Origin: Muribaculaceae bacterium
GTDB taxonomy: Bacteria > Bacteroidota > Bacteroidia > Bacteroidales > Muribaculaceae
Direction of reading: 5' to 3'
Assembly: GCA_017409345.1 (NCBI GenBank)
Contig: JAFQSX010000005.1
Span: 1-64,000 of the forward strand
Length of the DNA stretch: 64,000 nt
Both the position numbers and the translations under genes were made by a program. Of this stretch, positions 1 to 59,003 are shown piece after piece. The first letter of the stretch is position 1, and every line of letters begins with the position of its first letter. Under the pieces are notes generated by a model that saw only the letters and a program-made list of their open reading frames with translations, was not told the origin of the DNA and ran no database searches.

Positions 1-81
1 TCTTCCCATTCCGAACAGAGAAGTTAAACCTCACCGCGCCGATGGTACTGCGAAAGTGGGAGAGTAGGTCACCGCCCCCTA
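1..81 (+). rRNA. rrf: 5S ribosomal RNA, 3' part
   Basis: The first 80 bases match the 3' two thirds of bacterial 5S rRNA: the loop B/C region around CCGAACAGAGAAGTTAAA, the GATGGTACTGC segment, and the GTGGGAGAGTAGGTCACCGCC strand that closes the molecule. The 5' part and the rest of the rRNA operon lie upstream of the window. A terminator follows within ten bases, so this is the end of the operon. The exact 3' end is approximate. Confidence 0.93.
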
Positions 82-3800: not shown

Positions 3801-4412
3801 TCATCAAACGAAGGTGGTGAAGGGTTAGAATCAAAAACTACAATCACAATCAATGGAGGTAACTTTACATTTACAACTTATGATGACTGTATCAATGCTG
3901 CAAGTTCATTAACAATCAATGGAGGTAATCTTCGTTGTGTTGCTACCGGAAACGATGCAATAGACTCAAATGGCACAATGTCAATCACCGGAGGTCTTGT
4001 GTTGGCCAATGGGTCTCGTGACCCTGAAGAAGGTGTCGATGTGGATCAAGCAAGCAAATTGTCAATCACCGGTGGTACTGTAATCAACCAAAAAGGTAAT
4101 ATGTTGAACCTTACAACAACACAATGCAAAGTGCCGACAATTAAGTATTCATCTTCAATTTCGGCCGGAACATTGATTACTATTACAAATTCATCGGGCG
4201 CTCACATCTTGTCGTTCAAGGCTCCTCAAGCAATGAGTCAAGGTTGTTACATCACATTGCCCGAATTCAAATCAGGTAGTTCATATAAACTTTATACAGG
4301 TGGATCTGTCTCAGGTGGAACAGTATTTAATGAAGTGACAAAAGGTGGTTCATTCTCTGGAGGTACACAAGTGAAATCGTTTACAATTTCATCAAATTTG
4401 ACTTCACTCTAA
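852..4412 (+). CDS. Large secreted beta-helix-like carbohydrate-binding domain protein (Cthe_2159/DUF4353-like)
   Basis: An 1186-residue exported protein with a signal peptide (residues 1-22, ending SLAWAAE). Residues 23-75 form a beta module shared with the preceding small protein. From about 80 to 590 there are repeated short strands of the form N-G-G-x-I/L-x-V and DGIDGD or KGIKSD turns, typical of the Cthe_2159 right-handed beta-helix family, whose founding member binds polygalacturonic acid. Two related blocks of about 120 residues (around 340-460 and 460-580, each with NDPSYCS or YDPSHCS and GGKGIS) look like tandem duplications. About 610-900 is a different, propeller-like insertion. 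A Gly/Pro linker (GGGPGGNRPGMPG) then leads back to beta-helix repeats (about 970-1110). There is no clear T9SS domain at the C-terminus. The start can be either Met of the ATGATG; the first overlaps the previous stop. Ligand unknown. Confidence 0.82.
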   Translation: MMKKKVLTGAVLTLSALSLAWAAETMWIHRTDNITLGLPITIADSVSLSGNNVVFTATNGEVKTMPNTEVSKVTLGDPTTVVEVKYNGTDAEIINPFAFEGVTVTKTGADVVVTSTSLSEITYELTGTTTTGSFKVYSDTKFNLDLNNVSITNDNGAAINIQTGKKCTVNLVGTSTLADAASYTTVTGEDQKGCFFSEGQIVFGGTGVLNVIGNYKHGVVSDDYIEMTSGTVNIVSAFNDGVHANDYFLMNGGKLTTKSTGGDGIDGDVGYIEINDGTIDINLATADTKAIKSDSIITVNGGNITLTVPAAQGKGFKTKQTMTVNGGTITANMTGDVAIVSNDPSYCSAIKTDVDFVQTNGTINITHSGAGGKGISADRNVNLQGGTLSVTVTGGNGTYTNTSGVTDNYAPTCISADNNVNVSGGNITLNVKANSAKGIKSDVNTTISGGTITGTLTGSSVVVNYDPSHCSLIKCDGNYTQNGGTINATHSGVGGKGISVDGVATFNSGNVTITTTGSAATYTASTGTDTYSPICISVDGNLNLLGGTFNVKSTGAGGKCIKSDQQIIMGTINGESPEITTPSVSSGNMSQEWNFSQNGGNSSSWVTTGSQGVEDIALANGKLYAVCRGSSATDHTIKIINAYTGSQSGTLNTTSCTAGTYNLSSVETLGSTILACNLAANTSTNLVIYKWDSDSSTPTVLLNAAPPCTRAGDAMSVSGTMTNGRIWFAYGSQVYYYTISNGAITSTTPTTINLTKNGSAYEIASGVPYSNITVESDGSFWVSSSLANYAATHFSSTGAYIEEMPSGLVNNQGTDVKFFTYNGVKYAAASTYLNTTNTAISEGAVSVVNMSTSSVEGTYPSNGLGSARNTCFRNSVCVEAGTDYYYVWVNVPFQGVACYKYAEATTEEGGTTEEDTPTGEIAPLIVTAQTTGAQFGSSSSGGGPGGNRPGMPGSSTSTNGSTSPKVIKAMSAMTVYSGSFTIKSSNEGGEGLESKTTITINGGNFTFTTYDDCINAASSLTINGGNLRCVATGNDAIDSNGTMSITGGLVLANGSRDPEEGVDVDQASKLSITGGTVINQKGNMLNLTTTQCKVPTIKYSSSISAGTLITITNSSGAHILSFKAPQAMSQGCYITLPEFKSGSSYKLYTGGSVSGGTVFNEVTKGGSFSGGTQVKSFTISSNLTSL

Positions 4413-4447
4413 CGATTTGAATATTTCTAAATAAGAAAAACTTTTTA

Positions 4448-4490
4448 GTAACACACAATGGAGCTAGTTCCATTGTGTGTTACTTTTTTA
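4448..4490 (+). terminator. Rho-independent terminator
   Basis: A perfect 15-bp stem (4448-4462 with 4469-4483) with a six-base loop GCTAGT, followed by TTTTTTTA. It closes the two-gene unit starting at 421. Confidence 0.9.
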
Positions 4491-4716
4491 TATGGTATGA
4501 TTTTTCTTTTTGATTGTAGATATGTGTATTAAGGTGTTAAATGCGGGGATGGCTTTTATTGTAAATCGCAACAAAGTCTTTAATAATCCCTTTTATTTCA
4601 TTAATTTCTTCAATAAATAGGACAAGATACAATTAATGAAATAAGGATAGTCGATTGTTTCAAATGGGAAGAATATCTTTTTTCTCATTCTTATGACGAA
4701 ATTAAAAGATTTGTGC
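4491..4716. other. AT-rich intergenic spacer, no gene seen
   Basis: I find no open frame of note, no RNA fold and no repeat in this stretch between the terminator and the promoter of the next gene. Confidence 0.5.
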
Positions 4717-4724
4717 TATATTTG
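4717..4724 (+). promoter_or_regulatory. Bacteroidota -7 promoter element
   Basis: TATATTTG matches the TAnnTTTG -7 consensus and lies 29 bases upstream of the chosen ATG. No clear TTTG is visible at -33, so only the -7 half is supported. Confidence 0.5.
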
Positions 4725-4753
4725 TGCCTCATTAAATTAAATAGGTGTATTTT

Positions 4754-7648
4754 ATGAAAAAAATTTTACTATCAATTTTAGGTGGCATTATGTCGGTTTG
4801 TGCAATATCGGCTCAAACGACCATTTATGCTTATCGTAGTTTTCAAGCAAGTAATCCACAAACTGTAAAAAAAGGGCCAGTTAAGTTTTTAGCAACAGCC
4901 CCAAGTAACGTACAATTGATTGCTGATCAAACAAAAATGGGGTCGGTATATGCTGGAGAGTACTATAACTACAAGTGGTATGCACAAGTGACCCAATTGG
5001 GCACACAATCAACTCTTGAAGGATTATATACCATAGACTTAGTTGATGGAACGCGAACATTGATATCTACAGCAGGATCTCATCTGGTTGAGATGTGTTA
5101 TGACTACTCAACAAATACAATGTATGGAATCAAGAATGGAGCCGAAAACCTTGTGACTCTTAATATTGAAACCGGCGAAACCTCAAGTATAGGTTATTTT
5201 AAAACAACTACCGGCTCATATATTTACATCTTGGCATTAGCAATCGACCTAGATGGACAAATGTATGCAGTGGGTATGGATGATATTTTCTATAAGGTTG
5301 ATAAAACAAATGCCGTGTGTACAGCAATCGGTAGTACAGGTACGAATGCAGCATATACGCAAAGTATGACCTTCGACCACAATAATCATGTGCTATATTG
5401 GGCAAATAATGGCGATTATACATTGTATACAATAAATCTTGAAACAGGAGTTGCTACAGCAGTAGGAATAATTGGTGCAAATGGAGATGATAGTGTGTGT
5501 GCAATGATTATTCCATTTATTAATGTCGCTAAAGGCGCCCCTGATAGAGTTGTAGAACGTCGAGTAGAAGCACAAGGTAAAGATGTAGTTATTACATGGA
5601 AGAATCCTTCTATAGATGCACAAGGAGTAGCACTAACAGAGTTGACAGGAGTAAAAATTTATCGAAATGATGAGTTAGTAAAGACACTCTCAATGACTTC
5701 TGAAAATATAGGCAAAACATCAACATATACCGATGTGGCACTTGCCGATGGTAAATATTCTTATAAAATTGTAGCCGAAAACTCAAAGGGAGAAGGTGGT
5801 GTCGATAGTGAAAACGTAGATATATATATTGGCAAAAATGCTCCCGGACAAGTAAATAACTTAAAAGTATTGAGTGGAGATAATACGGCAATACTATCAT
5901 GGGAAGCTCCTACTGAGGGATTGTATGGAGGAGAATATGATGTTAATAGTGTAACCAAATATATCATTACACGTACCAAAGGTTCTTCTTCAACAGAAAT
6001 TGAAATATCAGATCCTGCAGTAACAACATATACAGATTCTCCCGGATTTGGTAAATATACTTATTCGGTTACTGCTGTAAATAATATGGGTAAAGGAGCA
6101 GAAACAACATATGGCGAAGTTGTTGTAAAACCAGCAGACTGGATTTTGATGATGACAGGTGAGGTTGTTGTAGAGAATGGTACTGAATATAAATTTTATG
6201 ATGTATCTGGGCCAAATTCATATTATCCCAATTCACAAAATGATACACTTGTAATTCGTCCTACAAATGCAAAGTCAAAAGTAGTGGCTAAATTTACAAA
6301 ATTCTCAATGGATACATATGCCGATTCATTGATTGTATATAACGGAATAGGAGTAGGTGGTAAGTTAGTTGGTCGCTATTCTGCAACGAGTGTGCCTTCT
6401 GACCTTGTAGAAGTGGAATCAACAAGTGAAGATGGAGCATTGACATTTGTATTCTTCTCTGATGTAATGAGCCGAGATGAAGGATGGGAAGCTACAATTG
6501 AAGCAAAAGAAAGTAAACAATATGATTTGGCCACAGTAGCATTGCAAGGAGATTTATATCCCGAAGAAAAGAAAACTTCGGAATATGTGTTAAAAATCCG
6601 CAATAAAGGTATGCAAAATGTAGGAGGAACTAGCTATAAGGTGAAATTGCTCGACGGAAACAATGTGGTTCTTGCAGAAGGTTCAGGTGTAGATGTAGCC
6701 TCAAATCAAGAATGTGAGATTAAATTGAGTTTTGAACCGACAACCGTAGGTGCTTTGACTATATATGCTGAAATCGAATATTCTGCCGATGAAGATGTTT
6801 CAAATAATAAGACTACAGCATTGTCATTGAATGTGCTCACTGCAGGAAGTAAGTTTATTGAAGTAGGTAATAGTGAAGACGAATTGTATGTTGTTCCTGC
6901 TTCATTTATGAGTGATGAAGGAGTGAGCCAAACAATATATTTTGCCGAAGAATTAGGAGATGGTGTAAAAGAAATGGAGTTAAAAATGATTTCATACCCA
7001 TATTATAACGTTACAAGTAATTATGCTAATGTTCCGGTTAAAGTGTGGGTTAGTGAAACCGACAAGACATCGTTGGAAGATCGCAATCTTTATGCATCGG
7101 AAATGACATTAGTATATGAAGGAAATTGTCCTATATCAACAGGTGATTCTGAATGGAGCATTCCATTGTCAATTCCATATAAATATACCGGAAAGAATTT
7201 GGTAATTATGGTTTATAAAAGTGGAGTAGGTACAAACTCTATGGGAGTTACATTTAAGGGTACATATGGAGACTATTCAGATGTAAACAAACGTACGCGC
7301 AATGCTACTAAATACTTTGAAGATGATGTTATAGATTTAGAAGGCGTGATTGGCTATAGCGCAGGGACAATGGTGCCTGATGTTAAATTATTATTTGCAT
7401 CATCGGCAGGAGTTGAAGAGGTGGAGATAAATAACAATGTGAAAGTATATCCTAACCCTACATCTTCTATGTTGTATTTTAATGAAGAAGTTTCAGAAGT
7501 ATCACTTATGTCAATTTCTGGTCAACTTGTCTATCAAGGTAAAAATGTATCATCAATCAATGTTGCCCCTTATTCAACAGGTGTATATGTGTTAAAAGCA
7601 ATTGCACACGATGGCTCATTGATTATTAAACGCATTGTAAAGAAATAA
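4754..7648 (+). CDS. Multidomain secreted protein with fibronectin type III and CUB-like domains and a T9SS type A sorting domain
   Basis: A 964-residue T9SS cargo. I start it at the ATG that opens MKKILLSILGG rather than at the GTG nine bases earlier, because the signal peptide begins there and ends near SAQTT. About 60-260 resembles a beta-propeller (TNTMYGIKNG, HNNHVLYWANN). Two fibronectin type III-like repeats follow (about 265-460: VVITWKNPS...YSYKIVAENSKG and AILSWEAP...YTYSVTAVNN). A CUB-like domain comes next (about 475-590, DTLVIRP and DEGWEATIEA), then a CARDB-like stretch (about 595-700). The C-terminal 70 residues are a classical type A sorting domain (VKVYPNPTSSMLYF...STGVYVLK...IIKRIVKK). 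It is probably anchored to the surface or released. Monocistronic, with terminators on both sides. Substrate unknown. Confidence 0.83.
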   Translation: MKKILLSILGGIMSVCAISAQTTIYAYRSFQASNPQTVKKGPVKFLATAPSNVQLIADQTKMGSVYAGEYYNYKWYAQVTQLGTQSTLEGLYTIDLVDGTRTLISTAGSHLVEMCYDYSTNTMYGIKNGAENLVTLNIETGETSSIGYFKTTTGSYIYILALAIDLDGQMYAVGMDDIFYKVDKTNAVCTAIGSTGTNAAYTQSMTFDHNNHVLYWANNGDYTLYTINLETGVATAVGIIGANGDDSVCAMIIPFINVAKGAPDRVVERRVEAQGKDVVITWKNPSIDAQGVALTELTGVKIYRNDELVKTLSMTSENIGKTSTYTDVALADGKYSYKIVAENSKGEGGVDSENVDIYIGKNAPGQVNNLKVLSGDNTAILSWEAPTEGLYGGEYDVNSVTKYIITRTKGSSSTEIEISDPAVTTYTDSPGFGKYTYSVTAVNNMGKGAETTYGEVVVKPADWILMMTGEVVVENGTEYKFYDVSGPNSYYPNSQNDTLVIRPTNAKSKVVAKFTKFSMDTYADSLIVYNGIGVGGKLVGRYSATSVPSDLVEVESTSEDGALTFVFFSDVMSRDEGWEATIEAKESKQYDLATVALQGDLYPEEKKTSEYVLKIRNKGMQNVGGTSYKVKLLDGNNVVLAEGSGVDVASNQECEIKLSFEPTTVGALTIYAEIEYSADEDVSNNKTTALSLNVLTAGSKFIEVGNSEDELYVVPASFMSDEGVSQTIYFAEELGDGVKEMELKMISYPYYNVTSNYANVPVKVWVSETDKTSLEDRNLYASEMTLVYEGNCPISTGDSEWSIPLSIPYKYTGKNLVIMVYKSGVGTNSMGVTFKGTYGDYSDVNKRTRNATKYFEDDVIDLEGVIGYSAGTMVPDVKLLFASSAGVEEVEINNNVKVYPNPTSSMLYFNEEVSEVSLMSISGQLVYQGKNVSSINVAPYSTGVYVLKAIAHDGSLIIKRIVKK

Positions 7649-18926: not shown

Positions 18927-20945
18927 ATGTATAATATTTCCGACCTAAACGCAATGAGTGATCAAGAACTCAAAACGATTGCGGAATCTATGGGATTGAA
19001 AAAAGTAGATCCCTCAAAAAAAGATGAATTAATTTATCGCATTCTCGACGAACAGGCAATTTCTATGGCTACGGCTACTGCTGCCGAAAAGAAAACTCGT
19101 GCAACAAAAGAAACAAAAGCCAAGAAGGAAAAGAAATCGACCGAAAATAAAAAAGAAACCAAAACCAAGAAAAAAGACGAATCTACACCATCAGGTTCTA
19201 AGATTGAGTTAGTGGGTATTGATGACCAACCAATAGATGCGTCTATTGCAAGTGATGAACCGATTAAAGAGGAACCAAAGGTGGAAAAAACGGCTCGTCG
19301 CACTAAAAAAACATCGGCAAAGAAAGATGCTCCTGCCGAAAAGATCGAAGAGAAACAAGAGGAACAACAATCGTTGCCCCTTGACACTTATGATGAAAAA
19401 GATGAAATGACAATGCTTCCACCATTGGCCAAAGATGAAGAGCCGATGATGGCGAAAGTAGAAGTCCCGTCCGAAAAGCAACAAGAGGGAGCCGCTCCGG
19501 TAAGTGAGGTCGTGGAGCCTAATCAGCAAGAGGAAAAACCACGAATGGACTTCCGCCCCAAGGAAAATTCTTCATTTGGTTCGTTTTTCCCTCGTGGAGA
19601 AGGTCGTCGATTTGTGCCACGTAGTCAACGCGAAAAAGAGGAGGCTGCAACAGCCGCTGCAATTGCCGCAGCCACATCTCCGATTATCATTGGTGAACCC
19701 GGACGCGAGCAACAAGAAAAACCTCAACAGCAACATCAAGGAAAACAAAATAAGAAACAAAAAAATCGCAATAATAAGCAACAACAATATCAACAACCAC
19801 AACAACCGGCCGAACCATTATATAATTTTGACGGATTTATAAATGCTTGTGGTGTGCTAGAAGTGATGCCCGATGGGTATGGTTTTCTTCGTTCAAGCGA
19901 TTATAACTACCTTTCATCGCCCGATGATGTGTATGTAACTCAATCACAAATCAAAAATTATGCACTTAAGACCGGTGATGTAGTGGAATGTACAATCCGT
20001 CCGCCTCGTGAAGGAGAAAAATATTTCCCTATGAGTACTGTGACAAGTGTCAATGGTCGTCAACCCGGATTTATTCGCGATCGCGTGGCATTTGAACATT
20101 TGACGCCTTTGTTCCCCGATGAAAAATTTGATTTGACAAGTGGTAAGACTTGTAATCTTTCAACTCGTGTAGTTGATATGTTCTCGCCGATAGGTAAAGG
20201 ACAACGCGGACTCATTGTGGCTCCTCCTAAAACCGGTAAGACAATCCTATTGAAGGATATAGCCAATGCCATTGCAGAAAATCATCCCGAAACATATATC
20301 ATGATTCTCCTTATAGATGAACGTCCTGAGGAGGTTACCGATATGAGTCGCAGTGTAAATGCCGAGGTTATTGCTTCAACATTTGACGAACCAGCTGACC
20401 GACATGTGAAAATCGCAAGCATCGTGCTCGAAAAGGCTAAACGCATGGTCGAATGTGGTCACGATGTAGTGATATTGCTCGACTCAATAACTCGTCTTGC
20501 GAGAGCATATAATACTGTCTCTCCGGCATCGGGTAAGATTCTTTCAGGTGGTGTAGATGCCAATGCGCTTCAAAAACCCAAGAGATTCTTCGGTGCTGCT
20601 CGTAATATTGAAAATGGTGGCTCTCTCACTATCATTGCAACAGCGTTGACCGAAACAAGTTCAAAGATGGACGAAGTAATCTTTGAAGAATTCAAAGGTA
20701 CAGGTAATATGGAGTTGCAACTTGATCGCAAATTGTCAAACAAACGTATCTTCCCTGCAGTTGATATTATGGCATCAAGTACTCGTCGCGATGACCTCTT
20801 GATTCATCCCGAAATGCGTAACCGTATGTGGATTCTTCGTCGATACCTATCGGATTATAACTCAATAGAAGCAATGGAATTTATAAAAGACCGTATGGAA
20901 CGCACATCCTCAAACGAAGAACTCCTCTTCACGATGGGAGACTAA
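18927..20945 (+). CDS. rho: Transcription termination factor Rho with large disordered insertion
   Basis: A 672-residue hexameric RNA helicase that ends transcription; the E. coli protein has 419. Residues 1-48 are the Rho-N helical domain ([20 protein letters not shown]). About 50-300 is an insertion of low complexity: Lys/Glu-rich, then Gln/Asn-rich ([10 protein letters not shown]). The RNA-binding OB domain follows ([20 protein letters not shown]). The ATPase core has Walker [12 protein letters not shown], Walker [17 protein letters not shown], the Q-loop [16 protein letters not shown] and the EEFKGTGN motif. Disordered Rho insertions are usual in Bacteroidales, and one has been reported to drive phase separation in Bacteroides thetaiotaomicron. 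Confidence 0.96.
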
Positions 20946-49458: not shown

Positions 49459-49533
49459 CGGGGTGTAGCTCAGCCAGGTTAGAGTACGCGTCTGGGGGGC
49501 GTGTGGTCGGAAGTTCGAATCTTCTCACCCCGA
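49459..49533 (+). tRNA. tRNA-Pro (anticodon GGG)
   Basis: Acceptor CGGGGTG pairs with CACCCCG plus discriminator A. D-arm GCTC/GAGT, an anticodon arm with loop CTGGGGG (anticodon GGG at 49494-49496), and a T-arm with AGTTCGAATCT follow. CCA is not encoded. An accessory gene starts 83 bases beyond its 3' end. Confidence 0.93.
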
Positions 49534-49540
49534 CTGGCTA

Positions 49541-49575
49541 AATAGGCTCAACGATTTCGTTGAGCCTATTTTTGT
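49541..49575 (+). terminator. Rho-independent terminator of tRNA-Pro
   Basis: A perfect 14-bp stem (49541-49554 with 49557-49570, AATAGGCTCAACGA) and a TTTTTG tail. It is intact between the tRNA and the polyvalent gene. Confidence 0.88.
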
Positions 49576-49615
49576 ATATGTAAGACGTTATAGGAAAGGC
49601 GAGGGACGAGAGGCG

Positions 49616-52600
49616 ATGGCGAGAGAGTCTGCAAGTGCTCAAGTGATTGAGCAAGTGCCAAGCACTCAAGTGACCGAGGTGGCAGAGGAGTCAACCGAGC
49701 GACCGATGGAGATTGCTCCGGGAGTGGCAGTGCGTGTGGGAGGTGTTGCCGGTGTTGCAACGTCATTCCCTGAAGATGGGAAGGTGATAGTTGAAACCGA
49801 AGATGGGAAAATTCTTCCATACGATGAAAGTGAGGTGGAAGTTGTTGGAGAGACGACTGAGACCACTGGTACAACTGAGACAACTATGTCGGATGGGTCT
49901 AATGAGTCTGCTGAGGTTGATGATAATGGTCGTCCATTTATTGTTTCTTCGAATGGGACAACTACCTTTGGCGAGATTACAGAAGATACCGGATTGCCAT
50001 CAGCTCCGATAAAGTTAAGCGAGGGCTATCAAGATGAAAATGGCAAAGGTTATGGCTTGGCACATATTGAGGCGAACTACGGAAAGCAAATTAGGGGTGC
50101 GGGATTTAAATCTGTTGAAGAATTTGTGAGATTTGTTGCCGAGAATTATGATGGGAACGACATAAGGGTAGGCAATCCAAGAGGAGACGGTAATATTACT
50201 TATTTAATACAAGTAAAGGATAAGTATGATAACACTTTGTTTATTGAATTGTCTAGAGATGGGTCTTATTGGAATGTGAATAGTGGAGGTGTGTTCCGAA
50301 AAGGATATTCTGATAAAAAGGAAACGGTTGTCAAGACCGAACCCCAACAACCGAATAATGCCGTTTCGCCAGACTCTTCGCTTTCTGAAGTTGGTAACGA
50401 AGGCATTTCAACAACAGAACCCAACGGCGAGTCTCCCGTTTCACAAGGCGAAGATAGTGAAAATAAATCGGATATGCAAGAGGGTGGTGTCAATTCACAG
50501 GCTATTCCGGTAGATGCGAAAGGGGAGCCGATGTATGAGAGTGCACCGGTGGAGGCTACTATTGCGGATATATATAATGACCCTGACCTCGATGAGGAGG
50601 AGGCTGATGCTTTTGTGCAGGCTAAAATAGATGGGGCAACAAAGCGCATTGCTCAACTTGAGAAGAAAAAACCGAAGATGGGTGAGAGCAAGGTTGCTTT
50701 CAAGGAGGCAAAAGCGAAATGGCGTGAGCAGTTGGAAGCAGAACAAGCGTCGTTGGCATATTGGCAAGGAGTGCAAGAGGCGCGAGCGAAGGAATCTACC
50801 GCCTCCCCCTTAACCCCTCAGTCCTACGGACAGCCCCCCTATCAAAGCAGGGGGGCAATAACTCCTCCTATTGCTGCGCAACCGGGAGGAGAGTTAGACA
50901 CCAATGGAGAAATGGGAGAGATAGGAGAAATGTCTGCTGAGGCTGAAGGTGATGATGTGAGTGAACGAGACTCTAAGGTCGATAAGGGTACTAATGTCGC
51001 TGAGGAGGGCAGTGTCACAGAAGGGACAGTTGAGGAGGAAACTCCTATTGTAGAGGAACAAACACAAGAGGAGACAGGGGAACTGACCACCTCTCCCTTA
51101 CAGGATTCTGCTCAGTCGCAAGCGAGTGGAGGGTTAAGCGAGGATTTAGCTGAAGTTGTCGGGGAGACTGATAGGTTGCTTGCTGAGAAAGGGCGAGCGA
51201 TGGAGGCATATCTCCGAGCCGAGGAGGAATCTGATAGAAAAGCGAAGTTTGCCGATAATTTACAAGCCGTTATCGCATTGGAGACTTATGCGATGGGGTT
51301 GAGTGATGAGCAGTTGGCGGCATTGCAAACGCATTATGGCAAAGGAGAAGTGAGGGAAATAGACGATGAGATTAGTCGTCGAGAAGCAAACAAAGGGAAG
51401 AGTACTCAATATGACGAGTTGTTGTCGAAACAATATCCGATAGAGCGTAAGGCGAGAAAGGGGACAGGGAAACTCGAAGATGCGTTGAGCAAAGATGTGA
51501 CACGACCGGTGATGACGGGAGTGTATCATGATGAAGATGGTTATGCTGTGGCTACTGATGCGAAGGTGTTGGTGGCAGACAAAAGGGAGTATAACGGACG
51601 CAAGAAGGGCAAGATAATCGGCAAAGATGGAAAGGAGATACCGGGCAATTATCCAAAATGGAAACTTGCGATACCGGCAGAAACGGAAGCGTTGCCAATA
51701 GATTTGCAAGATTTGTCGGGCTTTATCGGAGGAGTAAAGGCTAAACTGAAAGAGAACGGCATCAAGCCAAAGGACTATGGCAAGGCAGTGGTAATGATAA
51801 AGACCGGAAGCGGAACGATAGTCTATTATCCTGTTGATGCATTAGAAACATGGCTCAATGGCGCTATGCGATTGGGTGCAACCGGAAGTGATGTCGGAGT
51901 ATCTGAAAGGAATGGATTTATTGTAGCCAAGACCAAGAATGGTGTTGCCATGTTGGCATCGAAAGGGGGATTGGCATATAATGATACCGGCATTGTCTAT
52001 GAGGTAAATCCTTCACCATCGACCCCTCAGTCGCAAGGCGACAGCTCCCCTGCCCTTAGGGGAGCACTTGAGATGCAAGTGGGAGATGGCGTAATGGAAA
52101 ATGCGACCGATGCACAACGATTGGCTACTGAAGCGGTGATAACTTCTCTTGAGGCGAGTGGCATTGAGGTTGTAGAAGCGAGTGATGCTATGGCGGAGGC
52201 TGTGATGGGAATGGGAGGTTCTACACATGAGATTGAACTTCAAGCCGTCAATGACAAATTTAATGCAGAACTTCAGCAGCAAATAGACGGGACATTACCC
52301 AAGGGTCATGTTTATAGTTTAGGTTATCCAAGTGCGATATTGCGAAGTGCAGGATTACCCAATCTACCAATAGAGCTTGCATCAAGCCGATTGTCGGATA
52401 AGAGTATGCAAGAGAATCACCCATTTGAATTAAGCGAGATAGAGGGACTTGTTAACGCTATACAAAACCCATTAGCGGTGTTCCGAAGTGCAACACATAT
52501 CGGTAGTTATGTTGTGTTGACCGAGATTGAGCATAAAGGGAAGAACTTTGTCGTAGCCATTGAGGCTAACCGTAAGCAAGGACGGTTAGAGGTTAATAGT

Positions 52601-55600
52601 GTTCGTAGCATACACTATCGCAGTTCAAATACCCACATAGCAAATTGGATAAAAGATGACTTGATGGAGTATGCCGATAAAAAAAGAATGTCTGAATGGA
52701 TTTCCAAACAGCGGTACAATTCCGCTGACGTTAGAAACTTATTCAGACACGTTGCAAAGGTAGTACAAAATTTTGAAAATCCCAAAATCGAGGCACAAAT
52801 AGTTTACCATGGCAGTGGTGCGAAGTTTGATGCGTTTGACCACAGCCACATGGGCCAGGGCGAAGGAGCGCAAGCCTATGGCTGGGGAACTTATGTGACC
52901 GAGGTAGAAGGTATAGGTAAACAGTATGCAAACACAATGCGAGATAAAGCAATAACGGATAAGCACAGAGAAAATGCAATTATAAATAATCTTGCTCGGC
53001 AAGTATTAGCTTCAAATAATGGCAATAAGGCAGAAATTCTTGAATATCTTCGAGGTTTGCTTAACGAATCCTGGAGTGATAAAAAACGTGTTAGAGCACA
53101 AATAAAGATAATCGAAATAGGAAAATTCTTGCCCGAAACAAAAATTAAGGCACAGCTTTACACAGTAGAAATCCCTGAGGATAATGGGAGCAATTATTTG
53201 TATCATGATAAGGTGATGGCAAATAATGTCATTGCCGACGTGAAACGACGATTGTATGATATACTTTCACAAGGTCAATACAAGGGTGCAGAACGAGAGT
53301 TGCGCGAAGAACTCGATGAAGTGTTTGTTTCAGGATTAGAGGGAGATGTGTTGTATAACAATGTATCGGCTTATCTTGGTGGTGATAAGCAAGCGAGTCA
53401 GCTCTTTAACGAAATGGGCTTTGTGGGAATAAAATACCCGGCACAATATACAACCGGAGGCAGAACCGATGGCAAGAGCAATTATGTAATCTTCAATGAG
53501 GCTGATGCCAAGATTACCAGCCGGGTGGAATTTTTGAAGACTCCGCAGGGAGTGGTTTATGGATGGACTGACGGGAAGAAGGTTTATCTCACTAAGGAGG
53601 GTATGAATCCTGAGACACCTATCCATGAATATACTCACCTATGGGCGAGAGCGATGATGCAGGGTAATGCCGAGGGTTGGCAGAGCGTTAAGGATTTGCT
53701 TCGTGGCACACCTATATGGAATGAGGTGATGAGCGATGCCAACTATGCGGATATTCATGGTGATGAAGATGCGGTTGCGAGTGAGTGTTTGGCTCGCTTG
53801 AGTGGCAAGGAGAATGCCAAGCGCATGGAGGCAGAGGCTCGCAAGATGATTGATGAGGCAAAAGGAGTGTTTGCCAAGGCTGATGCCGTGACGCTTGTGG
53901 AGCGCATGAAAAAGGCGTTGCAAGAGTTTTGGAATTGGGTAGGGAAGAACCTATTTGACATCAAGAGCTTCGGCAGTATCGAGGAGGTGACCGACCGAGT
54001 GCTCTATGATTTAATTCATAATTCACAATTCATAATTCATAATTCGGAGTTGCCGGGGATTGAAAAGCAGATTATCGGAGAGAGGGGAGCGAGTGCTCTT
54101 GATAAAGCAGATGAGGCGACTCATAGAATGGATAATCTTGGGGTGGCACGAGAAATGGAGGCCGATGGTAAAGATGCGAAGGCTATCCGTATGGCCACCG
54201 GTTGGGAGCGAGGCGCTGACGGCAAGTGGCGATATGAGATAGAGGATTATTCTATAAAAGAAGAAAAAATCGACTTTATTACAAACCAATTAGACTATAA
54301 AAATACGGCGACAATAATATTGAAAGACTTACTTGAAGATGCACAAGGCTTGTTTGCAGCTTATCCAGAATTGCGAAATATGCGAGTCGTCATAAAAAAA
54401 GACAGCAGTGTAATAGGTCAAGGAGAATTACAATGGTATGATGCAGTTTATGACAGACAAATTGTATTAAATGAAACTGCTATAATAAGTCATTTTGCGA
54501 AATCGGCTCTTGAACGTTATGGTAAAGCTGACGTAGGAATAATTCGGATCAAACAAGGATATGATCCAACGACAAAAGAAAAATTTACTAATGAAGCCGA
54601 TAAACAAGAGGCCTTGAAGACATATATTGAGATGATGAACGAGGCACTGCTTGATTATCACCGCTTTAAGAGCAAAAATAAGGATATAGCAACGAGTATT
54701 TTAACTCACGAGATACAGCATGCAATACAGTTCATTGAGGGTTTTGCCCGAGGGTCGTCACCAAAGGAGTTTGCCGATGTAAGGGGTGCGGTTATAGATA
54801 GTATAGATTTTATGACCAATGGAGATTTATTAAAAGGTAATTCAATTAGTAATTCTCAGAGTCTGCGAGATGCATTGAATAAGAAAATTCCGTACACAAA
54901 TATTTCCCTTAAAGAGGGCTATATTGATAATTTGCAAAAAGTAGCTCGCAAATATGGCTATGACAATATAGATGCTCTTGTTGATGATTTTGAAAAAATG
55001 CCGTCAGCCTTTGAGCAATATCACCGTACCGCAGGTGAAGTAGAGGCGCGAAATGCGTCGGCACGCATGGGCATGAGTGCCGACGAGCGCAGAGCGACGC
55101 TGTTGAGTGAGACAGAGGACGTGGCACGAGAAGACCAAATATTCTTGATGGAGAATAGTGGCGTGAGTGCGATGGCTGAAGGCGAAATAAATGATTTGAT
55201 TTCTCAAATGAAAGCAAATGCTTCAGTTGAACCTATTGTTGAAATTTCCGAAGAGAATTGGGTAGATAAGATTGTAACACCCATTGGCGAGGTTAAGATG
55301 GGGGAACATCAAAAGTCAAAACTATTCAACAAGGGACGAGAAAAACAATACGGAATGTTGCTTGAGACATTAAGTAACCCCGATATTGTATTAGAGGAAC
55401 AAAGCAAAGAAGATACAACGCATGAAAGGGATTCGGTATATCTTTTCATTAAGACATTCCAAAAAGAAGATGGCTCAAAATATGTTCATTTTGAGAGTGT
55501 AACGGTCAAACAAGATGGATTGGAAGTTTCGATTAGTTCTCATATTATAAGAGAGAACCAGTTGAGAAATAAAATGAAGAGTGATAGATTGCTTTATAAA

Positions 55601-57562
55601 GCGACTGCACTCGACCAATCTACCAATTCGTCCGCAGAGCAATCTATCAAAGGTGGTAGCCTCTCTTCTACCGACAAAGGTAGTGATAATATTGGAGATG
55701 TGCAAGGGTTAGAGGATTATAGTGCCGAAGAAATAAAGGAAATTGCCCGGGGCTATATTGAAGATGTGATTGCCGAGAATGGATTTGATGCAGAGGTTGT
55801 AGATTTGGCTATCTATGGATCTCGACGCAGAGGTGATGCCCGGGATGATTCGGATTTGGATATAGTGGTTGAATACTCGGGCAATGCTCGTGAAGATGAC
55901 TTATTTAATGCTCTTAATGATGCAGAAACTCAACTTGAGATAGATGGAGTGAAGGTTGACATCAATCCTATTACAAAGAGTAAATCGGGGACTTTGGGTG
56001 AGTTCATGGAGCGAGTAAGGGAGTATGATGAGGGGAATGGGTCTAATGGGTCAACTAAGAAGTCTCAACCCCTCACGAACCCCTCCGCCTTCGGCACCTC
56101 TCCTAAAACAGGGGAGGAATCGGGGGGCAGTTTGGAGGACGATGGCTTGTTGTTTAGAGAGGGTGATGGGGAGATGAATGATGCTGAGGTGAGTATGGCT
56201 AATGACCCAATTGCAAAGATTATGGGCAAGAGTCAACGCAGCAAGAAGCAACAGGCGAAGTTTGCCGAGCGAGAACGCAAGTATATGCGAAACACCAATG
56301 AGTTAGGCGAAAAAATTGCAGAAGCCGAGTCGGAGGTAAACACCAACCCGACAGATAAACAAAAGGAGGCAGGCAACTACAAGAAAGGACACGTTAAGGT
56401 AGGGCCGTTCAATATAACGATAGAGCAGCCGAAAGGGAGTGTGCGCAGAGGTGTAGATGCAGACGGCAACAAGTGGGAGACCGAGATGCAGAACACCTAC
56501 GGCTACATTCGTGGCACAGAGGGTGTCGATGGCGACCATATAGACGTGTTCCTGTCTGATGATATTGACGGTTGGGACGGGCACAAAGTGTTCGTAGTGG
56601 ACCAACGTAATGCTGACGGCAGCTTCGATGAACATAAGGTTATGCTTGGCTTCAATGACATCAACGATGCCGAGGCAGCCTATATGAGCAACTATGAAGA
56701 GGGTTGGCAGGGACTTGGAGCCATTACAGGTGTTGCCATAGAGGAGTTCGGGAAGTGGATAGCTTCCTCACATCGCAAGACCAAAGCGTTTGCGGAGTAC
56801 AAGAGTGTCAAAACCACCGAGGGACAAAGTACCGACGAGGGAATTTTGTTCCGCGATGGGGAGAGTGATGGGACGAGAGAGGAGTATGATAGGAGAGTGC
56901 GTCGTCCTAATCGCAGTGGCAGTGTAGGTAAGTGGGATAACCTTGGATGGCGCATGAAGGAGGCTTATCAAGACTCTATGCTATCGTTGAAGGAGTTGCA
57001 GGAAGTTATCGCCAAGAAGTATGGGTTGCAGGAGATACCATCGTGGATGAATGCTTATCTGCAAGAGAACTTAATGAGCAGTCGCAACAAGGCGGCAAGC
57101 GATGTGTATATGCGTGACTTCTACAATCCGATGATGAAAGAGGTGCAAGCCTTAATCAAGAAAGGGGTGAAGTATGAGGACTTGGTGAACTATATGATAG
57201 CGAAGCATGGGCTTGAACGCAACGTGGTGATGGCTGAGCGAGACGCCAAAAGGGCTGCTGACGAAGCGAAGGAAAAGGGAGAGGATTGGCAAAAGGCATA
57301 CGATGAGGCGTTGAAGGAGAACCGAAAACGAGACTATTCGGGTTTAACCGCGTTGACCGGTGAGGAGAGTGTGGTGGACGCCGAGAAGGTGGCAGAAAAG
57401 ATGGCGTTGGCAAAGTGCGACTATGACACAACTTTTAGCCCGATGATAGAAGCGAAGAGTGTGAAGATGAAAAATAAGCGAAGAAAGTTTGTGGGCTCTT
57501 TAAAAACGAAGATGCCTATTAGGGCAGTTCCGAGTGCGCCAATGCCCGTCCAAATGGCATAG
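49616..57562 (+). CDS. Giant polyvalent protein of a phage/conjugative element, probably truncated at both ends
   Basis: A 2648-residue frame with the architecture of 'polyvalent proteins' that phages and conjugative elements deliver with their DNA. Domains by eye: low-complexity acidic N-region (1-590); clamp-like module (about 600-790, GVYHDEDGYAVATDAKVLVA); MuF-C-like (about 905-1045, ENHPFELSEIEGLVNAIQNP); ADP-ribosyltransferase-like (about 1063-1300, YHGSGAKFDAFD and GEGAQAYGWGTYVTE); zincin with HEYTH at 1337-1341; a second metallopeptidase-like module with HEIQH at 1698-1702 and GEVEARN; PBECR-like nuclease (about 1881-1997); nucleotidyltransferase GSRRRGDARDDSDLDIVVEY (2068-2087); inorganic-pyrophosphatase-like (about 2259-2395, GVDGDHIDVFLSDD); then a helical region. 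The frame stays open upstream into the tRNA-Pro gene, so the ATG at 49616 may not be a true start. From residue about 2602 it is antisense to the sugE-type gene, so the true C-terminus is lost. No other mobile-element genes are near. Expression is uncertain. Confidence 0.72.
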   Translation: MARESASAQVIEQVPSTQVTEVAEESTERPMEIAPGVAVRVGGVAGVATSFPEDGKVIVETEDGKILPYDESEVEVVGETTETTGTTETTMSDGSNESAEVDDNGRPFIVSSNGTTTFGEITEDTGLPSAPIKLSEGYQDENGKGYGLAHIEANYGKQIRGAGFKSVEEFVRFVAENYDGNDIRVGNPRGDGNITYLIQVKDKYDNTLFIELSRDGSYWNVNSGGVFRKGYSDKKETVVKTEPQQPNNAVSPDSSLSEVGNEGISTTEPNGESPVSQGEDSENKSDMQEGGVNSQAIPVDAKGEPMYESAPVEATIADIYNDPDLDEEEADAFVQAKIDGATKRIAQLEKKKPKMGESKVAFKEAKAKWREQLEAEQASLAYWQGVQEARAKESTASPLTPQSYGQPPYQSRGAITPPIAAQPGGELDTNGEMGEIGEMSAEAEGDDVSERDSKVDKGTNVAEEGSVTEGTVEEETPIVEEQTQEETGELTTSPLQDSAQSQASGGLSEDLAEVVGETDRLLAEKGRAMEAYLRAEEESDRKAKFADNLQAVIALETYAMGLSDEQLAALQTHYGKGEVREIDDEISRREANKGKSTQYDELLSKQYPIERKARKGTGKLEDALSKDVTRPVMTGVYHDEDGYAVATDAKVLVADKREYNGRKKGKIIGKDGKEIPGNYPKWKLAIPAETEALPIDLQDLSGFIGGVKAKLKENGIKPKDYGKAVVMIKTGSGTIVYYPVDALETWLNGAMRLGATGSDVGVSERNGFIVAKTKNGVAMLASKGGLAYNDTGIVYEVNPSPSTPQSQGDSSPALRGALEMQVGDGVMENATDAQRLATEAVITSLEASGIEVVEASDAMAEAVMGMGGSTHEIELQAVNDKFNAELQQQIDGTLPKGHVYSLGYPSAILRSAGLPNLPIELASSRLSDKSMQENHPFELSEIEGLVNAIQNPLAVFRSATHIGSYVVLTEIEHKGKNFVVAIEANRKQGRLEVNSVRSIHYRSSNTHIANWIKDDLMEYADKKRMSEWISKQRYNSADVRNLFRHVAKVVQNFENPKIEAQIVYHGSGAKFDAFDHSHMGQGEGAQAYGWGTYVTEVEGIGKQYANTMRDKAITDKHRENAIINNLARQVLASNNGNKAEILEYLRGLLNESWSDKKRVRAQIKIIEIGKFLPETKIKAQLYTVEIPEDNGSNYLYHDKVMANNVIADVKRRLYDILSQGQYKGAERELREELDEVFVSGLEGDVLYNNVSAYLGGDKQASQLFNEMGFVGIKYPAQYTTGGRTDGKSNYVIFNEADAKITSRVEFLKTPQGVVYGWTDGKKVYLTKEGMNPETPIHEYTHLWARAMMQGNAEGWQSVKDLLRGTPIWNEVMSDANYADIHGDEDAVASECLARLSGKENAKRMEAEARKMIDEAKGVFAKADAVTLVERMKKALQEFWNWVGKNLFDIKSFGSIEEVTDRVLYDLIHNSQFIIHNSELPGIEKQIIGERGASALDKADEATHRMDNLGVAREMEADGKDAKAIRMATGWERGADGKWRYEIEDYSIKEEKIDFITNQLDYKNTATIILKDLLEDAQGLFAAYPELRNMRVVIKKDSSVIGQGELQWYDAVYDRQIVLNETAIISHFAKSALERYGKADVGIIRIKQGYDPTTKEKFTNEADKQEALKTYIEMMNEALLDYHRFKSKNKDIATSILTHEIQHAIQFIEGFARGSSPKEFADVRGAVIDSIDFMTNGDLLKGNSISNSQSLRDALNKKIPYTNISLKEGYIDNLQKVARKYGYDNIDALVDDFEKMPSAFEQYHRTAGEVEARNASARMGMSADERRATLLSETEDVAREDQIFLMENSGVSAMAEGEINDLISQMKANASVEPIVEISEENWVDKIVTPIGEVKMGEHQKSKLFNKGREKQYGMLLETLSNPDIVLEEQSKEDTTHERDSVYLFIKTFQKEDGSKYVHFESVTVKQDGLEVSISSHIIRENQLRNKMKSDRLLYKATALDQSTNSSAEQSIKGGSLSSTDKGSDNIGDVQGLEDYSAEEIKEIARGYIEDVIAENGFDAEVVDLAIYGSRRRGDARDDSDLDIVVEYSGNAREDDLFNALNDAETQLEIDGVKVDINPITKSKSGTLGEFMERVREYDEGNGSNGSTKKSQPLTNPSAFGTSPKTGEESGGSLEDDGLLFREGDGEMNDAEVSMANDPIAKIMGKSQRSKKQQAKFAERERKYMRNTNELGEKIAEAESEVNTNPTDKQKEAGNYKKGHVKVGPFNITIEQPKGSVRRGVDADGNKWETEMQNTYGYIRGTEGVDGDHIDVFLSDDIDGWDGHKVFVVDQRNADGSFDEHKVMLGFNDINDAEAAYMSNYEEGWQGLGAITGVAIEEFGKWIASSHRKTKAFAEYKSVKTTEGQSTDEGILFRDGESDGTREEYDRRVRRPNRSGSVGKWDNLGWRMKEAYQDSMLSLKELQEVIAKKYGLQEIPSWMNAYLQENLMSSRNKAASDVYMRDFYNPMMKEVQALIKKGVKYEDLVNYMIAKHGLERNVVMAERDAKRAADEAKEKGEDWQKAYDEALKENRKRDYSGLTALTGEESVVDAEKVAEKMALAKCDYDTTFSPMIEAKSVKMKNKRRKFVGSLKTKMPIRAVPSAPMPVQMA
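50802..50870. repeat. Palindromic REP-like element, in frame in the polyvalent gene (copy 1)
   Basis: CCTCCCCCTTAACCCCTCAG is followed by a GTCC-TAC-GGAC hairpin (50821-50831) and a second hairpin GCCCCCCT/AGGGGGGC (50833-50840 with 50849-50856). It encodes a proline-rich stretch (SPLTPQSYGQPPYQSRG) unlike its surroundings. Confidence 0.75.
51090..51135. repeat. Degenerate REP-like element in the polyvalent gene (copy 2)
   Basis: CCTCTCCCTTACAGGATTCT and CTCAGTCGCAAGCGAGTGGA echo the other copies (CCCCTCAGTC followed by a short palindrome), but the second hairpin is worn. Confidence 0.4.
52020..52070. repeat. Palindromic REP-like element, in frame in the polyvalent gene (copy 3)
   Basis: CGACCCCTCAG is followed by GTCGC/GCGAC (52030-52034 with 52038-52042) and GCTCCCCT/AGGGGAGC (52044-52051 with 52058-52065). 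The layout is the same as copy 1. It encodes TPQSQGDSSPALRGAL. Confidence 0.75.
54013..54045. repeat. Tandem AATTCATAATTC repeat in frame in the polyvalent gene
   Basis: Four near-identical AATTCA(T/C)A units stand in tandem and encode LIHNSQFIIHNSELP. The composition is much more AT-rich than the gene around it. A related sequence lies between the HAD gene and tamL. Confidence 0.7.
56067..56130. repeat. Palindromic REP-like element, in frame in the polyvalent gene (copy 4)
   Basis: AACCCCTCACGAACCCCTCC, a GCC-TTC-GGC hairpin, then CCTCTCCT facing AGGGGAGG and a G-run. It encodes a PLTNPSAFGTSPKTGEES stretch between the nucleotidyltransferase and pyrophosphatase domains. Confidence 0.65.
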
Positions 57563-57744
57563 GCTGTGCCGATGGGTAGTGTCTGGATGGCCTTGGCTAA
57601 TAGTCCCATGCTCAATATTGTAGATATTATGAAACCTACTATCCACAAGTATAATTCTATTCCTTCAGTATTTTTAGTCTTGCCAAGACAAAATGTCATG
57701 GAAACTTCAAATAATCCGGCAATAAAAAGTATTATCCAATTCAT
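57421..57744 (-). CDS. SMR family multidrug/guanidinium exporter subunit, SugE-like
   Basis: A 107-residue four-helix membrane protein of the small multidrug resistance family: WIILFIAGLFEVSMTFCLGK with the essential Glu in helix 1, GTAYAIWTGIGALGTALIG in helix 3 and the terminal IIGLKVVS. SugE/Gdx members export guanidinium by proton exchange, which the LPIGTAYAIWTGIG sequence favours over EmrE types. I use the ATG at 57744, giving a 17-base gap after the upstream glycosyltransferase. Its whole 3' part is covered on the other strand by the end of the polyvalent frame. Confidence 0.87.
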   Translation of the reverse strand: MNWIILFIAGLFEVSMTFCLGKTKNTEGIELYLWIVGFIISTILSMGLLAKAIQTLPIGTAYAIWTGIGALGTALIGIFVFKEPTNFLRLFFIFTLFASIIGLKVVS

Positions 57745-57761
57745 TGATGAGATTGTTGGTT

Positions 57762-59003
57762 TTATTTTTTTATCCAAGTGTGGTTGCGACGATAGTTGCG
57801 CTTGCTGTTGAGTTTATATATTGCGTTGTAGAATGGACGAGTCATTATAAACCATGGGATAGTGAGTCGTAAAAGTCGCGATTTTAATGCTTGTGCAGCT
57901 CCTCGCCAAGTATAGATGATGGGAAGCCATAAAATAAGTCCTAAAATGGCAACAATGGTTGCTGGAAATAGGTTTGGTAATGATATGAAGATTGTAGAGA
58001 TGGATAGTAATAACCAAATCCAAAGAAGAATAGAGTAGAATGCAAATAATGTGCGATAACCTTTTCGTAGGTATTTTGAGGTGTAACTATATCTGCGTTT
58101 GAGTATTTTATGTGATTCAATCGGATCATAAAAATGACATTCAACGATTGAATCATTTGAGAGTTCTACTTTAGTGTTTTTTTGAGTGGTTATTTCATTA
58201 ATAAATACATCATCTTCGCCAAAATGTAGATTTAGTGATCGAGAAAAACCTTTGTTGTCAAAGAAGCATTGGCGACGATAAGCAAGGTTGTAACTAAACC
58301 CTCGATAGGGAGAGTGGTTGATTGCTGCAGAAAGGTAAACTGTGGCTTCGGCAATGCGGTCAAATGCGCGACGACGATATCCTTTGATGGTGTCAGAATC
58401 GGGGCTAGGGGTTGCGTATCCTATGACAACATCGGTTTGCTCGTCAAAGTTGCGAGTGATGAGTGATAGCCATTGAGGTGAATTGATGCGAGAATTGGCA
58501 TTAACTGTAACGATGACTTCGTGTCGTGCGGCTTTAATGCCTAGTGTGAGCGCAAGTTTCTTGCGTGAAAGGCTGCGTGAGCGATCGGGGGTGTATGTGA
58601 GATATAGGTTGTGATAAGTCATTTCTAGTTGATTGACAACATCGCTTGTTGACTCTACTGAACCATCATTAACTACGATAACTTCAAATGGGGCGGGATA
58701 ATCTTGTTCAAGAATTTGTGGGAGTAATTGAGCGAGATTGGTGGCGTCATCGTTGCAATATACAATGACGGAAGCTGAAGGAAGTGTTGAGGGTGAAAGA
58801 TCAAATCCGCTATCAGAATGATAAAAATCATCGGACGAATAGCCGGTTGGGAGATTTTCTGCATTATTGCACTGCTTTTGGTGTTTGGCTACGCAAGAAA
58901 TGCTCTTGCGATAGAAAATCAGCAAGAACAAAATGCATATTGCCAAAGTTGAGAGCAATATAATCGTAGTTAAGGATATGTCGAAATTGAAAAATTGGGT
59001 CAT
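57762..59003 (-). CDS. Membrane-bound glycosyltransferase family 2
   Basis: A 413-residue GT-A enzyme. An N-terminal helix (about 12-32) is followed by the catalytic domain with VIVYCNDDATNLAQLLPQIL, DYPAPFEVIVVNDGS, VIVTVNANSRI, the GEDDVFINEI acid motif and the KILKRRYSYTSKYLRKGYRT (R/Q-x-RW-like) region, then two or three C-terminal helices. It probably builds or extends a surface polysaccharide. It lies next to, but opposite, an exopolysaccharide operon. Confidence 0.87.
   Translation of the reverse strand: MTQFFNFDISLTTIILLSTLAICILFLLIFYRKSISCVAKHQKQCNNAENLPTGYSSDDFYHSDSGFDLSPSTLPSASVIVYCNDDATNLAQLLPQILEQDYPAPFEVIVVNDGSVESTSDVVNQLEMTYHNLYLTYTPDRSRSLSRKKLALTLGIKAARHEVIVTVNANSRINSPQWLSLITRNFDEQTDVVIGYATPSPDSDTIKGYRRRAFDRIAEATVYLSAAINHSPYRGFSYNLAYRRQCFFDNKGFSRSLNLHFGEDDVFINEITTQKNTKVELSNDSIVECHFYDPIESHKILKRRYSYTSKYLRKGYRTLFAFYSILLWIWLLLSISTIFISLPNLFPATIVAILGLILWLPIIYTWRGAAQALKSRLLRLTIPWFIMTRPFYNAIYKLNSKRNYRRNHTWIKK

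What the first reader, a model, noticed from the sequence alone, without database searches (positions are those of the whole stretch)
49616..57562. Solitary giant polyvalent protein without its mobile element
A single frame carries at least eight modules known from proteins injected by phages and conjugative elements (clamp-like, MuF-C-like, ADP-ribosyltransferase-like, two HExxH modules, PBECR-like, nucleotidyltransferase, pyrophosphatase-like). No integrase, mobilisation, portal or tail gene lies nearby. It sits just after a tRNA-Pro gene, a common integration point. It is either a fossil of an element or a retained effector/defence cassette. The open frame of almost 8 kb without a stop suggests recent arrival or continued selection.
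Basis: partly seen in the sequence, partly recalled or inferred. Interest (0 to 1): 0.8.

Follow-up and report, generated by a model that had tools for sequence, protein, structure and literature searches.

The report
Orphan fragment of giant phage gene
A bacterium carries, just behind a tRNA gene, an 8-kb piece of a giant many-tool gene from a temperate phage; both ends are cut off and the rest of the phage is gone, so it is most likely a recent prophage leftover of an already described kind.

Summary
One frame at 49616-57562 (+, 2648 codons) carries polyvalent-protein modules, starts 82 bp behind tRNA-Pro, and has no integrase, portal or tail gene near it. Correction: the last 47 codons read backwards through sugE, so the phage-like part ends at about 57420. 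A same-genus genome (G006) has tRNA-Pro, terminator, 164 bp and sugE: an empty site.

The gene is an inner piece of the giant gene that a temperate phage family of this bacterial family encodes between integrase and portal. The N-terminal region, LPD38 and portal are missing. A second solitary copy (G003) lies behind tRNA-Arg, where eight relatives read show none; its shared blocks are 84-96% identical in DNA while other modules are swapped. A left-arm remnant at tRNA-Gly (G148: tRNA, integrase, two small genes, giant gene cut near the same point) shows how tRNA-adjacent fragments can arise.

Best reading: a recent prophage fossil without a visible promoter of its own. Host capture of such genes was described by Iyer et al. 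2017. Retention for defence is not excluded. Unexpected: six fragments at different loci end within about 200 codons of one another, upstream of LPD38.

The parts
49459..49534 (+). tRNA-Pro (ggg)
   Evidence: ARAGORN; Rfam
49540..49571 (+). terminator hairpin of tRNA-Pro, host-type (similar in G005, G006)
49574..49615 (.). left junction zone, host DNA to phage-like DNA; in frame with the ATG and free of stops
   Evidence: alignment to G006 ends at 49573
49616..57562 (+). polyvalent gene fragment, 2648 codons
49712..49846 (+). short N-terminal block shared with the solitary G003 copy
51482..51742 (+). clamp-like part (weak)
   Evidence: PHROG
52397..52696 (+). MuF_C
   Evidence: Pfam
52799..52936 (+). 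ART-PolyVal, partial and below cut-off
   Evidence: Pfam
53624..53638 (+). first HExxH motif
54116..54250 (+). LPD23
54707..54721 (+). second HExxH motif (HExQH invariant in 8 aligned relatives)
55304..55600 (+). PBECR2 nuclease-like
   Evidence: Pfam
55787..55984 (+). nucleotidyltransferase
   Evidence: Pfam
56357..56761 (+). inorganic pyrophosphatase
   Evidence: Pfam
56834..57403 (+). start of the conserved region that precedes LPD38 in intact phage proteins
57421..57562 (+). end of the frame, antisense through sugE, not phage-derived
57421..57777 (-). sugE-like small multidrug resistance gene

Best explanation
It is an inner fragment of the giant polyvalent gene of a temperate tailed phage, left in the chromosome after the rest of the prophage was lost. 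In this phage family the gene lies between the integrase end and the portal gene, and prophages can sit at a tRNA gene with that end next to it (shown for G342 and G148). In the window the integrase, the small genes, the N-terminal region and everything from before LPD38 through portal are missing, so the remaining 7.8 kb joins the tRNA-Pro terminator to the stop codon of sugE (junctions shown; deletion steps inferred). The open frame reflects recent arrival from a phage population in which the protein is under purifying selection. It probably does little now: no visible promoter, no virion to be packed into, a truncated C-terminus. At most, read-through from tRNA-Pro could make a protein whose pyrophosphatase, NTase, PBECR2 or metallopeptidase modules still act (inferred).
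For: Empty site in G006 and no such gene behind tRNA-Pro in ten same-genus relatives read for up to about 400 bases. 3' fusion to antisense sugE. Relatives with frames of 4,000-7,002 aa in 23 of 41 matching genomes (my count). g2 and portal flank the giant gene in G013, G078, G158, G199, G231 and G254; integrase similarity in G013, G078, G199, G342 and G148 (Pfam and PHROG integrase for G342). G148: tRNA-Gly, integrase, g2, g3, giant gene in three frames cut at about residue 4968 of the G254 protein, no portal in the 60 kb held. Independent solitary copy in G003 at another tRNA. LPD38 is 666-861 of the last 1007 residues of G254, the window match stops at about 133-160. Decayed remnants in G002, G130 and G350.
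Against: The tRNA terminator looks host-type and there is no tRNA repeat at the right end, so simple loss from a prophage inserted inside the tRNA 3' end does not explain the left junction. No intact prophage of this kind was seen at tRNA-Pro. The two closest solitary copies (window, G003) start at nearly the same place, which random deletion does not predict. Several solitary copies are not beside a tRNA (G373, G388, G117). No close (over 80%) donor phage was found: best IMG/VR segment 72%, phage records at most 60-80%.
Confidence: 0.8

Rival explanations
1. A captured polyvalent gene kept by the host because its modules act against incoming phages or plasmids, as Iyer et al. proposed for polyvalent genes outside elements.
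For: Frame intact over 2601 phage-like codons; dN/dS 0.15 (0.10-0.21) in blocks shared with G003, though that mostly reflects the phage donors. At another site G388:C52 keeps at least 2833 open codons where G130 has a remnant; flanks 90.6% identical, dS of three flanking genes 0.58, about 98 nonsense changes expected if neutral (about 17 if only 5% per-lineage divergence). Iyer et al. section 32.
Against: No promoter seen, truncated C-terminus, no ortholog in any of the other genomes of the genus at this site. PADLOC matches are weak and only in the NTase part (best 8.7e-7). The G388/G130 insertion may not be shared: phage-side ends differ.
Confidence: 0.14
2. The solitary pieces are a distinct unit with preferred ends: either a mobile module or the scar of phage DNA cut by its packaging terminase upstream of LPD38 and sealed into the chromosome.
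For: Six fragments in different genomes end at 133/160-334 of the last 1007 residues (G198, window, G148, G003, G373, G388); range p about 0.002 if uniform. Window and G003 also share the 5' start, and G001 holds the complementary part with LPD38 and portal.
Against: Post hoc test on six ends; solitary copies that stop earlier (G117, G043, G388:C82) are outside it. No repeats, target duplication or own recombinase seen. Packaging of this family is unknown.
Confidence: 0.08
3. The join of phage and host DNA is an assembly chimera.
For: The genome is a 75%-complete assembly in 38 contigs.
Against: No long repeat at the junctions (one search lists only the largest families). Other assemblies (G003, G373, G388 and more) show the same kind of arrangement at other sites.
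Confidence: 0.04

Closest known systems
Polyvalent genes outside elements (third context of Iyer et al. 2017, PMC5512222; abstract, passages, sections 32 and 34 seen)
   Same: Multidomain protein with domains of phage-type polyvalent proteins and no element genes nearby; interpreted there as acquired from element remnants.
   Different: Here both breakpoints, an empty site and a left-arm intermediate are mapped; a pol-beta-type NTase occurs together with InPase and PBECR2, although the paper lists pol-beta NTase only for conjugative-element proteins (passage).
Giant polyvalent gene of intact relatives (G254, G199, G013, G231, G158, G078; IMG/VR L050)
   Same: Shared modules in shuffled order and the conserved region before LPD38.
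   Different: Frames of 4,945-6,536 aa followed by LPD38 (Pfam tested for G254 only) and portal; the window has only 2601 phage-like codons.
   Same: Behind a tRNA and hairpin, same orientation, same 5' start, blocks 84-96% DNA identity, cut before LPD38.
   Different: tRNA-Arg instead of tRNA-Pro; MuF_C and ART absent, PBECR1 added; ends about 120 residues later.

Membership tests
Polyvalent protein (Iyer et al.) | 2 to 15 domains of disparate activity in one polypeptide | tested here: met
   Pfam, motifs
Phage-type polyvalent protein | domains listed as phage-only (InPase, PBECR2) | tested here: met
   Pfam; list in passage of PMC5512222
Phage-type polyvalent protein | LPD38, as in intact relatives | tested here: not met
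   absent from the window protein; LPD38 lies beyond the cut in G254
Phage-type polyvalent protein | neighbourhood of virion genes | tested here: not met
Phage-type polyvalent protein | packed in the virion and injected | not testable with these tools
   needs proteomics of particles
Host-captured polyvalent gene (third context) | homologous domains without element genes nearby | tested here: met
Host-captured polyvalent gene (third context) | use in host defence (proposed in the paper) | not testable with these tools
   PADLOC gives only weak NTase matches
Prophage integrated at a tRNA | integrase gene at the site | tested here: not met
Prophage integrated at a tRNA | repeat of the tRNA 3' end at the far end | tested here: not met
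   longest exact match 9 bases

The most novel reading that the evidence does not exclude
Fragments of this phage family at different loci share a cut zone upstream of LPD38 because the packaging terminase cuts there: solitary polyvalent genes would be scars of prophages that began to package in place and were sealed by end joining.
Probability: 0.08. Interest if true: 0.65.

Novelty: new member of a known kind. Interest (0 to 1): 0.35.

Why it matters
It is a well-resolved example of how giant phage conflict genes end up alone in chromosomes: an empty site, a second site, an intermediate with the integrase still in place, and module swaps between near-identical blocks. If the shared cut zone holds in a larger sample it would point to a special place in the phage genome, perhaps its packaging end. 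If frames such as that of G388 prove to be under selection, reuse of these proteins by hosts becomes testable.

Tried and rejected
A single-gene mobile element that targets tRNA terminators was considered when window, G003 and G043 all proved to lie behind a tRNA plus hairpin; rejected as the main reading because other solitary copies lie elsewhere (G373 beside a glgA-like gene, G117 between dnaA-like and nrd-like genes, G388 before a methylmalonyl-CoA-epimerase-like gene; these gene names were read by eye from translations) and because tRNA-integrase-polyvalent arms exist (G342, G148). A link to the portal-like ORF found in all 12 genus genomes was considered; the window gene is not next to it. 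Searches that led nowhere: alignments of the two ends of the gene against IMG/VR; solved structures; three of four literature searches. Structure prediction was never accepted by the queue. 'LPD38' was at first my label for the region of the cuts; Pfam showed that the domain itself lies further on, and the report uses the corrected wording; notes written before still carry the old label.

Full report
What is there. The window (contig C38 of a 75%-complete, 38-contig genome) carries one open frame at 49616-57562, 2648 codons. From base composition an open run of that length has probability about 1e-77, so it is coding in origin. Pfam finds InPase, MuF_C, LPD23, NTP_transf_2 and PBECR2 at their cut-offs and ART-PolyVal below it. 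Two HExxH motifs lie at residues 1337 and 1698; the second is invariant in an 8-sequence alignment. The clamp-like part rests on PHROG matches of 6.6e-5 and 0.1. The match to phrog_14770 stops 760 positions before that profile's end, a first sign of truncation.

Ends. On the right, the last 47 codons are antisense of sugE: five relatives match residues 2597-2648, and alignment with G006 host DNA resumes at 57422, at the sugE stop codon. On the left, alignment with G006 runs through tRNA-Pro and its terminator to 49573, by eye a few bases further. In G006 only 164 bp separate the flanks: the empty site. Behind tRNA-Pro in ten same-genus relatives I read up to about 400 bases (less in one short locus; downstream genes differ in some) and saw no polyvalent sequence. 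The bases between terminator and ATG show no site in either promoter scan. No exact match longer than 9 bases to the tRNA and its flank lies in the insert or in 57200-58200.

A second copy. Shared blocks are 84-96% identical in DNA (96% over 2107 bp, 94% over 616 bp, 84% over the 145-bp N-terminal block), while MuF_C and ART of the window are absent there and a block with PBECR1 is added. Host DNA at that tRNA is 78% identical between the two genomes; in eight relatives read for about 330 bases the site has no such gene. In the conserved blocks dN/dS is 0.15 (bootstrap 0.10-0.21; columns chosen for at least 75% local identity), which mostly reflects selection in the phage donors.

The parent element. 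In 297 family genomes 41 match the window protein at 1e-10; in 23 of the 41, by my count, the longest matched frame has 4,000-7,002 aa, with modules in shuffled order. G013 shows integrase-like gene, small genes, giant gene, portal. tblastn places g2 and portal around the giant gene in G013, G078, G158, G199, G231 and G254, and finds integrase similarity in G013, G078, G199, G342 and G148. G238 is an exception: its portal (52709-54670) lies upstream of g2. A portal search at E 1e-100 hits 62 of 397 genomes, a count that includes a shorter, more distant portal group. In G342 the order is tRNA-Gly, integrase, g2, giant gene up to near the contig end; in G148 it is tRNA-Gly, integrase, g2, g3 and the giant gene in three frames, cut at about residue 4968 of the G254 protein, no portal in the 60 kb held. 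Both have the giant gene on the tRNA's strand, as in the window and G003.

How general. LPD23 occurs in 9 of 397 family genomes, 11 places, 8 genomes over the cut-off. One place (G126) is in a phage; two (G302, G156:C6) are small ORFs beside another kind of large ORF; eight places in six genomes show no phage genes by eye, and tblastn with integrase, portal and g2/g3 was negative for window, G003, G373, G388:C52 and G043 (G340, which runs to a contig end and is below the cut-off, and G388:C82 were not in that test). G117, found and without LPD23, is also negative. A tRNA lies directly beside three of these (window, G003, G043), not beside G373, G388, G340 or G117.

Cut zone. With residues 4801-5807 of the G254 protein as query, 18 of 397 genomes match: seven reach the end (G254, G231:C75, G199, G078, G156:C27, G158, G238:C47); two are cut by contig ends (G054, G088); six are cut inside contigs at 145 (G198), 133 by this search or about 160 by BLASTP (window), 168 (G148), 282 (G003), 321 (G373) and 334 (G388); G130 and G350 are decayed; G001 holds the complementary part with LPD38 and portal. 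For six ends a range this narrow has p about 0.002 if uniform, but the test is post hoc, and fragments that stop earlier (G117, G043, G388:C82) are not in it. LPD38 lies at 666-861 of the query, beyond all six cuts.

Fossil or kept. The window has no ortholog to test. At another site G388:C52 (at least 2833 open codons, contig start) and G130:C11 (a small remnant) share flanks at 90.6% identity; three flanking genes give dS 0.58, so about 98 nonsense changes would be expected in a neutral frame, or about 17 at 5% per-lineage divergence. This favours selection there only if the insertion is shared; the phage-side ends differ, so it is not proven. Codon usage of the window frame is not unusual (distance 0.124; 17 other ORFs 0.100-0.214), GC3 is 0.44 against 0.24-0.40 in 16 of those 17 and 0.46 in gyrB.

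Known or new. Iyer et al. 2017 (PMC5512222; abstract, passages, sections 32 and 34 seen) describe polyvalent genes outside elements as acquired from element remnants and possibly used against invaders. The window is a member of that kind. In four literature searches (listings) I saw nothing on a shared cut zone; [quoted passage not shown]

Verdict. Observation confirmed with one correction; interpretation partly supported; most likely a recent prophage fossil, with defence use open.

Noticed in passing
L103 (G000:C36) 2129-5810; portal-like ORF in all 12 genomes of the genus: A ~480-aa P22-type portal ORF (31-41% identical to phage portals) occurs in 12 of 12 genus genomes, one stop in G003, G004 and G007; in G000 it sits with an SU10-type capsid gene and a small ORF, similar by eye in G008 and G009. 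Perhaps a domesticated phage cluster.
   Followed up: partly
family genomes, many of genus g46: Besides the ~660-aa portals of the parent phage family there is a second group of ~500-600-aa portal ORFs at 45-58% identity in many genomes.
   Followed up: no
L129 7701-15148 (G043:C23): Two divergent polyvalent frames behind tRNA-Arg share inverted segments (190 nt at 94%, 165 nt at 86%), an inverted pair of related pieces.
   Followed up: partly
L193/L194 (G198:C13), 15219 and 20363-20743: A truncated polyvalent frame fused to an antisense host ORF lies about 5 kb from a sugE-like gene, as the window's lies beside sugE; possibly chance.
   Followed up: no
L048 661-1170 (G002:C44), L047 1438-2067 (G005:C39): Small stand-alone ORFs resembling the ART module of the window protein.
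   Followed up: no
G238:C47, portal 52709-54670, giant gene ending near 92460: Order of portal and giant gene is permuted compared with other prophages of the family.
   Followed up: no
window 55787-55984 and 56357-56761: A pol-beta-type NTase and phage-only InPase occur in one polyvalent protein, against the split given in PMC5512222.
   Followed up: no
window 1-80: The window starts inside a 5S rRNA match.
   Followed up: no
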